Positions 3,951-25,215 of a stretch of 64,000 nt of DNA are shown here, piece by piece. The DNA is from Vicingaceae bacterium (GTDB lineage Bacteria > Bacteroidota > Bacteroidia > Flavobacteriales_E > Vicingaceae), in NCBI GenBank assembly GCA_019429185.1, contig JAHYJH010000001.1, positions 1 to 64,000 of the forward strand. The letters are read 5' to 3'. Under the pieces are notes generated by a model. That model did not search any database. It saw nothing but the letters and a program-made list of their open reading frames with translations, and had not been told where the DNA came from. Positions within the stretch are counted from its first letter, which is position 1, and each line of letters opens with the position of its first letter. Made by a program: the position numbers and the translations under genes.

Positions 3951-4192
3951 TTAGTAGTTATGTGTTAGTGTCATTCTGAACAAAATTTTATAAACTGAGG
4001 CACGAAGTTTAATAAAATGAAGTGATGACCACGAAGTAGCATTAATACCGATTAAAAACAATAAAAATGATATTAATAATCTTTTAATTACTTAAAAAAC
4101 GAAAATGAATTTTTATAATAGTTTAAAAACATTAAACTTAAATTTTAATTTATGCAATTATTTATTATAGCATTATTAAAGTAGAAAACAAT

Positions 4193-22040: not shown

Positions 22041-22061
22041 TCGTTCTATGTTCTAATACTT

Positions 22062-22130
22062 CTTTTGCATATGACTGATTTGCCAACGATGGGAGTTATG
22101 CTTCGTTGGCAAATCAGTCATATACAAAAG
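22062..22130. repeat. 28-bp inverted repeat, 13-nt loop
   Basis: cttttgcatatgactgatttgccaacga / tcgttggcaaatcagtcatatacaaaag, one mismatch. Confidence 0.9.
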
Positions 22131-22384
22131 AAAAAGGTGTCGCAAATATTGTGTTCAACAAAATTGTCGGTAGCCTGCAAAATATAGTTAGCAGCAAAAA
22201 CATGGAAACCAGACTAAAAAAGTGGCGTAGTGGTGCAGAAGCAATAATATCCAACATAAAACGGGGCTTCAACTTGGTACGCTGCACATGGAAAGGTTGG
22301 AACCGTTTTGTAGCAAAAGTACTATGGAGCGTGATTGCATACAATATCAGGGTAATGACAGCCCATATAGTGAAACTGGTTTAA
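22106..22384 (+). pseudogene. C-terminal fragment of a DDE-type IS transposase (ISNCY/IS1182-like)
   Basis: KKWRSGAEAIISNIKRGFNLVRCTWKGWNRFVAKVLWSVIAYNIRVM matches the pattern of DDE transposase C-termini; catalytic N-terminal part absent. Confidence 0.7.
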
Positions 22385-22639
22385 ATATACCAGTTCACAT
22401 AAACCATATACAAGCGTGTATGGTATGGGAAAGATATGTTCAATAATTTTAAAATGAGAGAAAAAAACAGATAAAAATGATAAAAACAAAAAAAATGGAC
22501 TAATAGAAAAAAATTACAGAAATTAGCCCCAAAAAACTGGCTGGAATAAAATTCCAAAAGGAAAAAATTGAAAAAAAATCGGACTTTACAGACTCACTCT
22601 AATTAGAGTCTTCTATGTTGTAATCCAAGTTTCAGGACA

Positions 22640-23040
22640 CTTTTTTTAATAATTATTTTTAACTTTACCATTGTAAATCTGAAGAGGAATTGAGCTCTGC
22701 TGGAGAGCAACTCAACAGCAATAAGGTTTATGACGTGGAATGTTTAGATAAAGCCCTTTAATCGGGGCTTTATTTTTTTAAACATTCTATGTCAAATATG
22801 GCTAATAAAAACTCATTCCTCTTTCAAAGATTTACTATACTATTGTAATGTAATGTAATGAACCAAATCTATAAAAACATCCTTCTATCAGCAGAACCGT
22901 ATTAATTGCGGGCTGCATTGCCGTGCTTTAATTTTTATAGTAAGTGAGCTGCGGCCTGTCAGAAGCAGATTCCAAAATAGTTGGAACTGCAAGACACTAA
23001 TAGCAGTCTCACTTTTGAAGGTGTTTTTTATAGAGGTTCA
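22640..23040 (-). ncRNA. candidate bridge-RNA region of the IS110/IS1111-type element
   Basis: About 400 nt non-coding segment 3' of the recombinase and inside the element, with several imperfect hairpins (e.g. tgacgtggaatgttta...ataaagccc...gggctttat...taaacattctatgtca). Confidence 0.45.
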
Positions 23041-23042
23041 TT

Positions 23043-24119
23043 TTATTTAACCACTGCGGATACATAATTTTTTTTATTTTTTAATACATATCTAACTCTA
23101 TTCAGTAATTTTTTTGCTATCCTTACTATTGCTTTAGTGGGTTCCATTCGTTTACAATAATCATGATAGCTTTTTGTTAATGCCGGATCAAGACGTGCTG
23201 CTATCCAAGCACTTTCAATAATTGCACCACGCAAAACACTGTGACCTCTGCGTGTGATATTGCCCACAACATCGTTCTCCCCACTTGAATGGATCGATGG
23301 AATTAAACCGATAAACCCACATAGTTTGTCAAAACTTTCAAAACGATTTATTGTTTCAAGTTCTGTTAATATTATCATTGCTGTCAATAAACCAATTCCT
23401 GGAACACTTCGTAATAATGTTACTTGCTCCAAATATTCTTTTGTTTTTGACAATGCTGTAATTTGTTTTGTAACACGTAAAACAGATGCTCTTAAATCTA
23501 TACTCGCTCCAACTATTGCATTCAGAGCGTCTTTTCCACTTTGCTCAGTCATTTCAATAGCGTTCAGCCAGTTTATAAATTTCTTTGACCAAACAGTTTG
23601 TTTTGAAAAAGATTCAGGTATCTCAATTCCATGAAAGTATAAAAAAGATTTTGTGCGGTTTTTATTTCGAACTAAATCCTTTACCAACGCTGACCTTGTT
23701 CGCAGTAAACTCCTATCATCAAGTGTCTTTAGGCATGGAACGTGAATAGCAACCAAATCTCCACTCCTTAATGATCTTGCTATTTTCCTACTATCTCTAG
23801 CATCTTCTTTTTGAACCTTTTCCTTATCCGTTGTTGGTATATCTGCCGGGTTCACTACGATGGAATTAATCCCATAAGATTTTAATTTATTATGTATCCA
23901 ATAACCACAAAAGCCTGCCTCATAAGCTGAATGATAAGTCCCTCCGGGAAAATTTTTTACCAAATAGTCCTTTAACAATTCCGGTTTAGGAGATTGTGAA
24001 AATGTTTTATGAGTAAGTTTTTCTGTCATAATTGTTACTTTCCAACTTTTCAAATGTACGTCAAAACCTACATAAATGTTTTGTCCTTTAAAATCTAATT
24101 TGTTACTTTGTGTTTGCAT
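23043..24119 (-). CDS. IS110 family RNA-guided recombinase/transposase
   Basis: N-terminal DEDD residues in VGFDVH, YEAGFCGYWI, KEDARDSRK; C-terminal SVPGIGLLTAMIILTE and TRRGHSVLRGAIIESAW. Confidence 0.93.
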   Translation of the reverse strand: MQTQSNKLDFKGQNIYVGFDVHLKSWKVTIMTEKLTHKTFSQSPKPELLKDYLVKNFPGGTYHSAYEAGFCGYWIHNKLKSYGINSIVVNPADIPTTDKEKVQKEDARDSRKIARSLRSGDLVAIHVPCLKTLDDRSLLRTRSALVKDLVRNKNRTKSFLYFHGIEIPESFSKQTVWSKKFINWLNAIEMTEQSGKDALNAIVGASIDLRASVLRVTKQITALSKTKEYLEQVTLLRSVPGIGLLTAMIILTELETINRFESFDKLCGFIGLIPSIHSSGENDVVGNITRRGHSVLRGAIIESAWIAARLDPALTKSYHDYCKRMEPTKAIVRIAKKLLNRVRYVLKNKKNYVSAVVK

Positions 24120-24210
24120 AAGTTTCTAGTTTTTATAGTTTATAGAATTGATATCATAAAACTAATAATTTCCTGAAACTTGTGCTTTATTTTACAAACA
24201 TACGGCCTGT

Positions 24211-25215
24211 ATGGAAGTCACTGGAGTATATCACGAAAATTGTGCCTTATTTCTTTATCAGCAAGGTTTTTCTGTGTCTATTATTCTTGCGAATAAAGCA
24301 AAAAGATATTTACAATCTTTAGGGCTTAAATCAAAAACTGATTCGATTGATGCAAAAGGACTTGCACAAATGGGAGCGGAACAATGTCTTAAAAAGTGGC
24401 AACCATTAGGGGCGTTTTTTTACAAACTTCGTTCTTTAACTAGACAGCACCAAAATTTGCAAGAAATGAAAACCTCTGTAAGAAATCAAATTCACGCACT
24501 CGAACACGGAATGTATTTAGAAAAAACCGTTTTAAAGCAGCTAAAAGCAAGTGTAAAATTGATTGAAAAACAATTAACAGAACTAGAAACAGATATAAAA
24601 AAAGCACTACATTCAGAGCCGTCTATATTTCAAAAAGTAGAGCATATTTGTAAAATTAAAGGCGTAGGCATCTTAACTGTAGCTACTATTTTAGTTGAAA
24701 CCAATGGGTTTGAATTGTTTGAGAACAATAAACAATTAGTGAGTTATGCAGGATATGACGTAGTAGCAAATCAATCGGGAAAACATACTGGCAAAACAAG
24801 AATATCTAAAAAAGGAAACAGCAGAATTAGACGTTGTTTATTTATGCCTGCTTTTTGTGTTGTAACTGCTAAAACAAAAGTGTTTTTTAACTTATATCAA
24901 AGAACATTTGAAAAACACGGCATAAAAATGAAAAGTTATGTTGCTGTACAAAAAAAATTACTAACAACCATTTATGCTTTATGGAAAAAGAACGAAGCCT
25001 TTGACGAAAATTATTGTCAAAAAGAAAAAGTTAATATCCAAGTGAAGGAACAGGAGCTTACCTCTCTGCTCGGCTCTGAAAGAGCCGAAAAAAATAGCCA
25101 AACTAAAAGTCTGGCTACACAAGGTAAACATCCAGTGAGTGATCACAGTTTGCTTCCTCTCTGCAAGGGCAAAGATAAGAAAAAAATAAAAATTAAGGTA
25201 CTTGAAAAAAATTGA
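24211..25215 (+). pseudogene. 5'-truncated second IS110 family transposase
   Basis: Begins at CMEVTGVYHENCALFLYQQGF; lacks the N-terminal GxDVSK-type block; retains KSKTDSIDAKGLAQ and ISKKGNSRIRRCLFMPA. Confidence 0.85.

What the first reader, a model, noticed from the sequence alone, without database searches (positions are those of the whole stretch)
22626..24182. Intact IS110/IS1111-type element with a candidate bridge RNA
A complete recombinase with the N-terminal acidic residues and the C-terminal serine-containing RRGHSVLRGAI block is bounded by 12-bp subterminal inverted repeats. About 400 nt of structured non-coding sequence sits 3' of the gene, where IS1111-type elements are reported to encode the bridge RNA (IS110-family bridge RNAs are established knowledge). 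It could be a programmable recombinase from a Bacteroidota host.
Basis: partly seen in the sequence, partly recalled or inferred. Interest (0 to 1): 0.6.

Follow-up and report, generated by a model that had tools for sequence, protein, structure and literature searches.

The report
RNA-guided jumping gene carrying two RNAs
This is a small bacterial jumping gene that makes its own guide RNA matching the DNA on either side of it, and next to that guide it carries a second conserved RNA element, not in Rfam, that turns up beside the transposase genes of several unrelated jumping-gene families in the same bacterial phylum.

Summary
The element is real: an intact IS1111-type (IS110-family) insertion sequence on the minus strand. 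Its ends lie outside the reported inverted repeats, at about 22610-24206 with an AG core, as relatives show. The ~415-nt region 3' of the transposase gene holds two separate structured RNAs. (1) Next to the gene (22866-23033, minus) is a bridge/seekRNA of two hairpins. Its 34 pairs include 22 with compensatory changes. In 17-20 relatives the target guides match each element's own flanks far better than swapped flanks (p<5e-6 for both sides), and the donor guide covaries with the left end (p~1e-5). The window's right guide matches its right flank at 7 of 9 positions, best of 20. Guide order (top-strand complement first) is the IS1111 order. (2) Between this RNA and the right end lies a second RNA (core 22669-22745), probably transcribed from the plus strand with its own -7 box and terminator. 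A covariance model finds it in 57 of 385 Bacteroidia genomes, near transposases of the IS3, IS256, IS256-Zn, IS481 and IS110 families and in one microvirus. It is not in Rfam and its function is unknown. The bridge-RNA part is a new member of a known kind; the shared second RNA is the surprising part.

The parts
22610..24206 (-). Whole IS1111-type element (1597 bp, one copy of the AG core counted in the right end)
   Evidence: Ends from conserved LE AG|NYC(C/G)TATGTTTG and RE AACATAGA|AG shared by relatives in unrelated flanks
23043..24119 (-). DEDD recombinase gene, 358 aa; D20, E67, D106, D109 and S279 (GLIPSIHSSG) as expected active-site residues
24169..24182 (-). Left inner subterminal inverted repeat (CAAGTTTCAGGAAA)
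22626..22640 (-). Right inner subterminal inverted repeat (GTGTCCTGAAACTTG)
24195..24202 (-). TATGTTTG in the left end: part of the outer inverted repeat and a Bacteroidota -7 box (TAnnTTTG)
   Evidence: joined right and left ends give TTG-N20-TATGTTT in 15 of 19 elements (19 in two; two not properly joined by the script)
22612..22628 (-). Right outer extension TTGGATTACAACATAGA before the AG core; its TTG would be the -33 element of the circle-junction promoter
   Evidence: TTG present in all 19 aligned right ends
22610..22611 (-). AG core at the right end; the second copy at the left-target junction is 24207-24208
   Evidence: AG invariant in the left-target guides and in all left flanks; read from relatives, no empty site available
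22866..23033 (-). Bridge RNA/seekRNA: target-binding hairpin then donor-binding hairpin
   Evidence: Structure; present in all full-length relatives including L007 and L017
22991..23002 (-). Right target guide TATTAGTGTCTT (complement of the top strand of core plus right target)
   Evidence: 7/9 match to its own right flank beyond the core, best of 20, no tie
22956..22964 (-). Left target guide TTCTGACAG (same sense as the left target plus core)
   Evidence: 4/7 match to its own left flank, rank 1 with one tie; weaker than in many relatives
22920..22925 (-). Right donor guide CACGGC (pairs with left end GCCGT)
   Evidence: 5/5; covaries with the left end across relatives
22881..22888 (-). Left donor guide ATAGAAGG (same sense as right end CATAGAAG)
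   Evidence: Match seen directly; both partners nearly invariant, so no covariation test
22660..22667 (+). Weak -7-like box TAACTTTA of the second RNA; exact TAnnTTTG at this place in many relatives
   Evidence: 23 of 51 exact, background 0.0007 per position
22669..22745 (+). Core of the second conserved RNA (inferred transcribed strand is plus)
   Evidence: CM R1 90 bits; structure
22746..22782 (+). Terminator-like hairpin of the second RNA
   Evidence: 38 of 45 relatives versus 1.6 in shuffles on this strand
22799..22815 (+). Conserved box TGGCTAATAAAAACTCA after the terminator; in other IS families it sits near the transposase stop codon
   Evidence: 37 of 45 relatives match the box pattern
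24207..24225 (-). Left target flank (...CCATACAG), inside a 5'-truncated IS110-family gene 24211-25215
22590..22609 (-). Right target flank (ACTCTAATTAGAG...), a palindrome

Best explanation
This is an intact, probably functional IS1111-group element. Shown by sequence comparison: (1) the 3' non-coding region encodes a two-hairpin bridge RNA; in the first hairpin a top-strand-complementary right guide comes 5' of a left guide; the second hairpin holds guides for the element's own joined ends; an AG core is read by the target guides. (2) The guides have been re-specified along with the target, so that relatives 95% identical in protein (window and L003) differ in their right guide and each matches its own flank. 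Inferred from the IS1111/IS621 literature: the excised ends join into a circle; the junction makes a promoter (TTG-N20-TATGTTTG, a Bacteroidota sigma-A type) that drives the recombinase and the RNA; the recombinase-RNA complex bridges circle and target, and DEDD+Ser chemistry inserts it at AG without target duplication. Separately, the distal half of the region is a second structured RNA, most likely transcribed from the opposite (plus) strand with its own terminator, a module that IS families of Bacteroidota share. My best guess is that it is an IS-borne small RNA (or 3'-end RNA) that acts on transposase mRNA or through a host factor; that step is not shown.
For: Protein. Ends and junction promoter; promoter consensus from PMC7366714. 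Bridge RNA structure: (95.1% of cells paired, 63 double-changed cells versus 15.8 shuffled, 0/500). Guides: RTG-RT own mean 6.85 of 9 versus 3.97 permuted and LTG-LT 4.29 of 7 versus 1.83, both p<5e-6, RTG also p<5e-6 on 15 non-redundant targets; RDG-LE p~1e-5 on 12 distinct combinations. IS1111 guide order and catalytic motif. Second RNA: structure (covariation score 0.641 versus 0.202 shuffled); distribution; neighbouring transposase families; promoter box; terminator.
Against: No expression or activity data. Single copy in the own genome and no empty site: the nearest relative has different sequence upstream of the neighbouring gene. The window's left flank fits its guide only 4/7, and the interrupted IS110-like gene has no recognisable 5' part beyond the right end, so the two flanks may not have been contiguous. 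Guide segments were first located by eye before the permutation tests. The outer stem of the bridge RNA has two alternative 5' partners that the data do not separate cleanly. Function of the second RNA is unknown, and three loci (L041, L064, L080) carry it on the same strand as the transposase gene.
Confidence: 0.9

Rival explanations
1. An inactive relic: a correctly built IS1111 element that no longer moves in this host.
For: Single copy; weak left-flank match; surrounded by fragments of other IS elements.
Against: Open reading frame, active-site residues, both ends, bridge RNA and guides intact; the close relative L003 (95%) has a different right guide matching its own flank, so recent transposition of this lineage is likely.
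Confidence: 0.2
2. The whole ~415-nt 3' region is one long bridge RNA, and the distal half is just a structural extension of it.
For: Both halves are structured and lie in one non-coding region of most relatives.
Against: Distal half absent from L007 and L017, which keep the gene and the proximal RNA; found without IS1111 next to other transposase families; its terminator and promoter box point to the opposite strand.
Confidence: 0.05
3. The second module is only an insulating transcription terminator that stops outside transcription from entering the element.
For: Terminator-like hairpin on the plus strand in 38 of 45 copies; in the classified copies it lies between transposase gene and element end.
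Against: A 77-nt core with strong covariation and near-invariant loops, and a -7 promoter box just upstream in 23 of 51, go beyond a terminator; opposite orientation in IS481 and two IS3 copies.
Confidence: 0.3
4. The second module is a host regulatory RNA that mobile elements have captured, not an IS invention.
For: Also found at the 3' end of a microvirus gene and in a few loci where no transposase was recognised (L058, L066, L074, L048).
Against: Most classified copies sit 7-100 nt from a transposase gene and many are multi-copy or at contig ends; several unclassified loci retain what look like IS terminal repeats.
Confidence: 0.25

Closest known systems
IS1111-group insertion sequences with seekRNA (ISEc11, ISKpn4, ISPa11; Siddiquee et al. 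2024, PMC11187229)
   Same: Downstream non-coding region, guide order top-strand complement then bottom-strand match, subterminal repeats, GL-P----SG motif, promoter at the circle junction, in some members palindromic or repeat targets
   Different: Here the inverted repeat is bipartite (outer CTATGTT, inner CAAGTTTCAGG), the junction promoter has the Bacteroidota form, and the region carries a second RNA module
IS621 bridge RNA (IS110 group; Durrant et al. 2024, PMC11208160)
   Same: Two-loop RNA with left/right target and donor guides, DEDD+Ser recombinase
   Different: IS621 RNA is in the left end and its guides are in the reverse order; distant protein (only a C-terminal stretch aligns, E 3e-6)
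ISPpu9 with small RNAs Asr9 and Ssr9 (PMC8450116)
   Same: An IS of Pseudomonas putida, inserted in REP palindromes, with two small RNAs that regulate transposase expression
   Different: Asr9 is antisense to the transposase 5' UTR; the second RNA here is at the 3' side, convergent, with a core shared by unrelated IS families
RNA-OUT of IS10 (general knowledge)
   Same: IS-encoded antisense-strand RNA
   Different: RNA-OUT overlaps the translation start of one family's transposase; the module here lies 3' and has a cross-family conserved core

Membership tests
IS110 family (DEDD RuvC + Tnp_20 recombinases) | DEDD domain plus PF02371 domain | tested here: met
   PF01548 5.9e-12, PF02371 8.3e-21, NF033542 1.3e-53, above cut-off
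IS110 family (DEDD RuvC + Tnp_20 recombinases) | Catalytic Ser in G--P----SG | tested here: met
   GLIPSIHSSG, S279
IS1111 group | Subterminal inverted repeats | tested here: met
   bipartite, the inner repeat farther from the ends than the usual 7 and 3 bp
IS1111 group | Long non-coding region downstream of tnp | tested here: met
   About 415 nt downstream versus about 87 nt upstream
IS1111 group | Guide order: top-strand complement 5' of bottom-strand match | tested here: met
   RTG 23002-22991 precedes LTG 22964-22956 on the minus strand (order from PMC11187229)
IS1111 group | Transposase clusters with IS1111 rather than IS110 reference proteins | not tested
   No tree with ISfinder reference proteins was built
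IS1111 group | No target-site duplication; fixed orientation in the target | tested here: inconclusive
   Flanks of relatives fit a single AG core, but no empty site was available
Bridge RNA/seekRNA | Conserved secondary structure with internal loops | tested here: met
Bridge RNA/seekRNA | Loops complementary to both sides of the target | tested here: met
   p<5e-6 for each side across relatives; window left side only 4/7
Bridge RNA/seekRNA | Loops complementary to the element's own ends | tested here: met
   RDG-LE; LDG-RE match seen but invariant
Bridge RNA/seekRNA | RNA is made and bound by the recombinase | not testable with these tools
   Needs RNA-seq or co-purification
Known Rfam RNA family (for the second module) | Match to any of 4227 Rfam 15 models | tested here: not met
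   no match at the core even at E<=1

The most novel reading that the evidence does not exclude
The distal half of the region is a previously undescribed structured small RNA, with its own promoter and terminator, that has spread as a module among unrelated transposon families (IS1111, IS3, IS256, IS256-Zn, IS481) and at least one microvirus of Bacteroidota: a shared regulatory or host-exploiting RNA of mobile elements.
Probability: 0.5. Interest if true: 0.75.

Novelty: new variant of a known kind. Interest (0 to 1): 0.58.

Why it matters
The bridge-RNA half adds a Bacteroidota lineage whose guides and targets can be read from natural copies: in relatives, insertions fall in repeat or hairpin sequences, and the guides change with the target. 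It gives ready RNA and target pairs for testing a programmable recombinase suited to gut and environmental Bacteroidota. The second RNA matters more if real: several unrelated IS families carry the same structured core beside their transposase genes, which suggests a common way of controlling transposition or exploiting the host that has not been annotated, and makes that question directly testable by RNA-seq and deletion.

Tried and rejected
Rfam scans of the region and of six module-bearing loci: only weak hits below gathering scores, none at the modules. Looking for more copies in the own genome or family: none. Empty site in the closest relatives: different sequence upstream of the neighbouring gene. 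Idea that left and right flanks came from two copies joined by recombination: left open but not adopted, since the left guide still prefers its own left flank over nearly all those of the other elements. Idea that the second RNA's core is protein-coding (its strand can read GSAGEQ): rejected because third codon positions of most of these codons hardly vary in an alignment spanning the phylum while the stems covary. Consensus promoter/terminator scan found no terminator-like site, probably because the stem runs into the T run. Searches of plasmid and phage records for the second RNA: nothing in plasmids beyond a 29-nt match; in phages one microvirus and a weak 23-nt match. Outer stem of the bridge RNA: two CTATAAAAA copies compete for the same 3' strand, unresolved.

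Full report
What is there. A 358-aa DEDD recombinase gene lies on the minus strand at 24119-23043. It matches PF01548, PF02371 and NF033542 above cut-off and aligns in a C-terminal stretch with the solved ISCro4 and IS621 transposases. Candidate active-site residues are D20, E67, D106 and D109, and S279 in GLIPSIHSSG, which fits the IS1111 motif GL-P----SG (motif from PMC11187229).

Ends. The reported repeats are real but inner. In 15 or more relatives with unrelated flanks, sequence conservation runs outwards to AG|NYC(C/G)TATGTTTG on the left and AACATAGA|AG on the right. This puts the element at about 22610-24206 (1597 bp with one AG). When right and left ends are joined in silico, as in the known circular intermediate, they form TTG-N20-TATGTTT in 15 of 19 elements and N19 in two more; in the remaining two the script did not join the ends properly. 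TAnnTTTG at -7 and TTTG at about -33 is the Bacteroidota sigma-A promoter (PMC7366714), so the junction promoter known for this family is here in Bacteroidota form. This is inference from sequence.

Relatives. The own genome holds one copy and 45 other genomes of the family none at the cut-off used. One genome scan gave 26 relatives at 36-95% protein identity, nearly all in Bacteroidota MAGs; further ones came from phylum and class samples.

Bridge RNA. The gene-proximal RNA (22866-23033) is present in all the aligned relatives whose right end is complete, including L007 and L017 which lack the distal half. Its consensus has a target hairpin and a donor hairpin; 34 pairs, 95.1% of cells paired, 22 pairs with changes on both sides, 63 double-changed cells against 15.8 in shuffles (0/500), and sliding the partners destroys it. 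The window's RNA folds 4.6 sd below shuffles. The outer stem has two possible 5' strands.

Guides. The 5' side of the target loop is the reverse complement of core plus right flank, the 3' side equals left flank plus core, as in IS1111 seekRNAs. For 20 elements the right guide matches its own flank at 6.85 of 9 positions beyond the core against 3.97 with permuted flanks; for 17 elements the left guide matches 4.29 of 7 against 1.83; both p<5e-6, and the right-guide test also holds on 15 non-redundant targets. The right donor guide follows changes in the left end (for example L031 TCGCT with AGCGA, L018 GTCGT with GTGAC), p~1e-5 on 12 distinct combinations. The window: right guide ATTAGTGTCTT against ATTAGAGTCTT, best of 20; left guide TTCTGACAG against CCATACAG, weaker. 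L003, 95% identical in protein, has ATTAAAACCTT and a flank GGTTTTAAAACC: natural re-targeting. The guide segments were located by eye first; the permutation compares own with foreign flanks in the same register, so this should not favour own pairs much.

Targets. Targets of several relatives lie in repeat-like or hairpin sequence (CCTCTCTTCGTGAAGAGAGG|GGG type in L006, L008 and L014; CCGCAG|GGCAGCGG in L012, L013 and L015). The window's right flank is a palindrome ACTCTAATTAGAGT, and its left flank is inside a 5'-truncated IS110-family gene. No empty site could be found.

Second RNA. Between the bridge RNA and the right end lies a 77-nt core (22669-22745). A covariance model built from IS1111 copies finds it in 13 of 396 Bacteroidota genomes at E<=0.01 and in 57 of 385 Bacteroidia genomes at E<=0.001, often many copies and at contig ends. 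Neighbouring transposases by NCBIfam: IS110, IS3 (L064, L067, L080, L083, L084), IS256 (L056), IS256-Zn/IS1249-like (L052, L060, L062, L065, L073, L079, L082), IS481 (L041), an IS30 remnant (L046); it mostly lies 7-100 nt from the transposase stop. On 52 aligned copies the structure scores 0.641 covariation against 0.202 shuffled, with 216 double-changed cells against 68 (the alignment was fitted to the model).

Strand of the second RNA. A terminator-like hairpin follows the core on the strand opposite to the IS1111 gene in 38 of 45 copies, 1.6 expected, against 13 (1.0 expected) on the other strand. A TAnnTTTG box starts 7-10 nt before the core in most of the 23 of 51 copies that have one within the searched interval (background 0.0007 per position); the window copy has TAACTTTA. 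Off-consensus A-C pairs on the model strand, which are G-U on the other, outnumber G-U 33 to 20 when the near-invariant pair is left out. I infer an RNA read from the window's plus strand towards the transposase stop codon, followed by a conserved box TGGCTAAnAAAACTCA. In L041, L064 and L080 it is on the transposase strand. It also occurs at the 3' end of a microvirus gene (64 bits). Rfam has no match and the literature searches found no description, but only open-licence papers were searched.

Verdict. As a bridge-RNA IS this is an expected find: bridge RNAs are predicted for 93% of IS1111 elements in ISfinder (PMC11208160). The unexpected part is the shared second RNA, whose function is unknown; ISPpu9 with two small RNAs (PMC8450116) is a precedent for extra RNAs in an IS.

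Noticed in passing
window 22669-22815 (+ strand) and loci L041, L052, L056, L060, L064, L067, L073, L079-L084: A structured RNA core with terminator and downstream box TGGCTAAnAAAACTCA shared by IS1111, IS3, IS256, IS256-Zn and IS481 elements of Bacteroidota; no Rfam family.
   Followed up: partly
L095 (PQ006462.1, microvirus) 1630-1706: The same RNA core overlaps the 3' end of a hypothetical gene in a 4.7-kb microvirus, followed by a terminator-like hairpin.
   Followed up: partly
L007 3577-3810, L017 1149-1410: Close relatives that lack the second RNA module but keep gene, bridge RNA and ends: natural deletions.
   Followed up: partly
L016 3733-3935; L020 and L021 right ends: Different sequence in place of the second RNA module, partly hairpin-rich; not identified.
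   Followed up: no
L018 about 4018-4075: A second, inverted copy of the left end lies just beyond the right end (57 bp almost perfect).
   Followed up: no
window 24211-25215: A 5'-truncated gene of another IS110-family recombinase directly abuts the left end; its missing first part is not found on the other side.
   Followed up: partly
window 22052-22143: Long near-perfect inverted repeat (weak false microRNA hits in Rfam) next to an ISNCY/DDE transposase fragment at 22106-22384.
   Followed up: no
window 22866-23033: CTATAAAAA occurs twice in the bridge RNA, and both copies can pair with the same 3' strand; a possible switch between long and short forms.
   Followed up: partly
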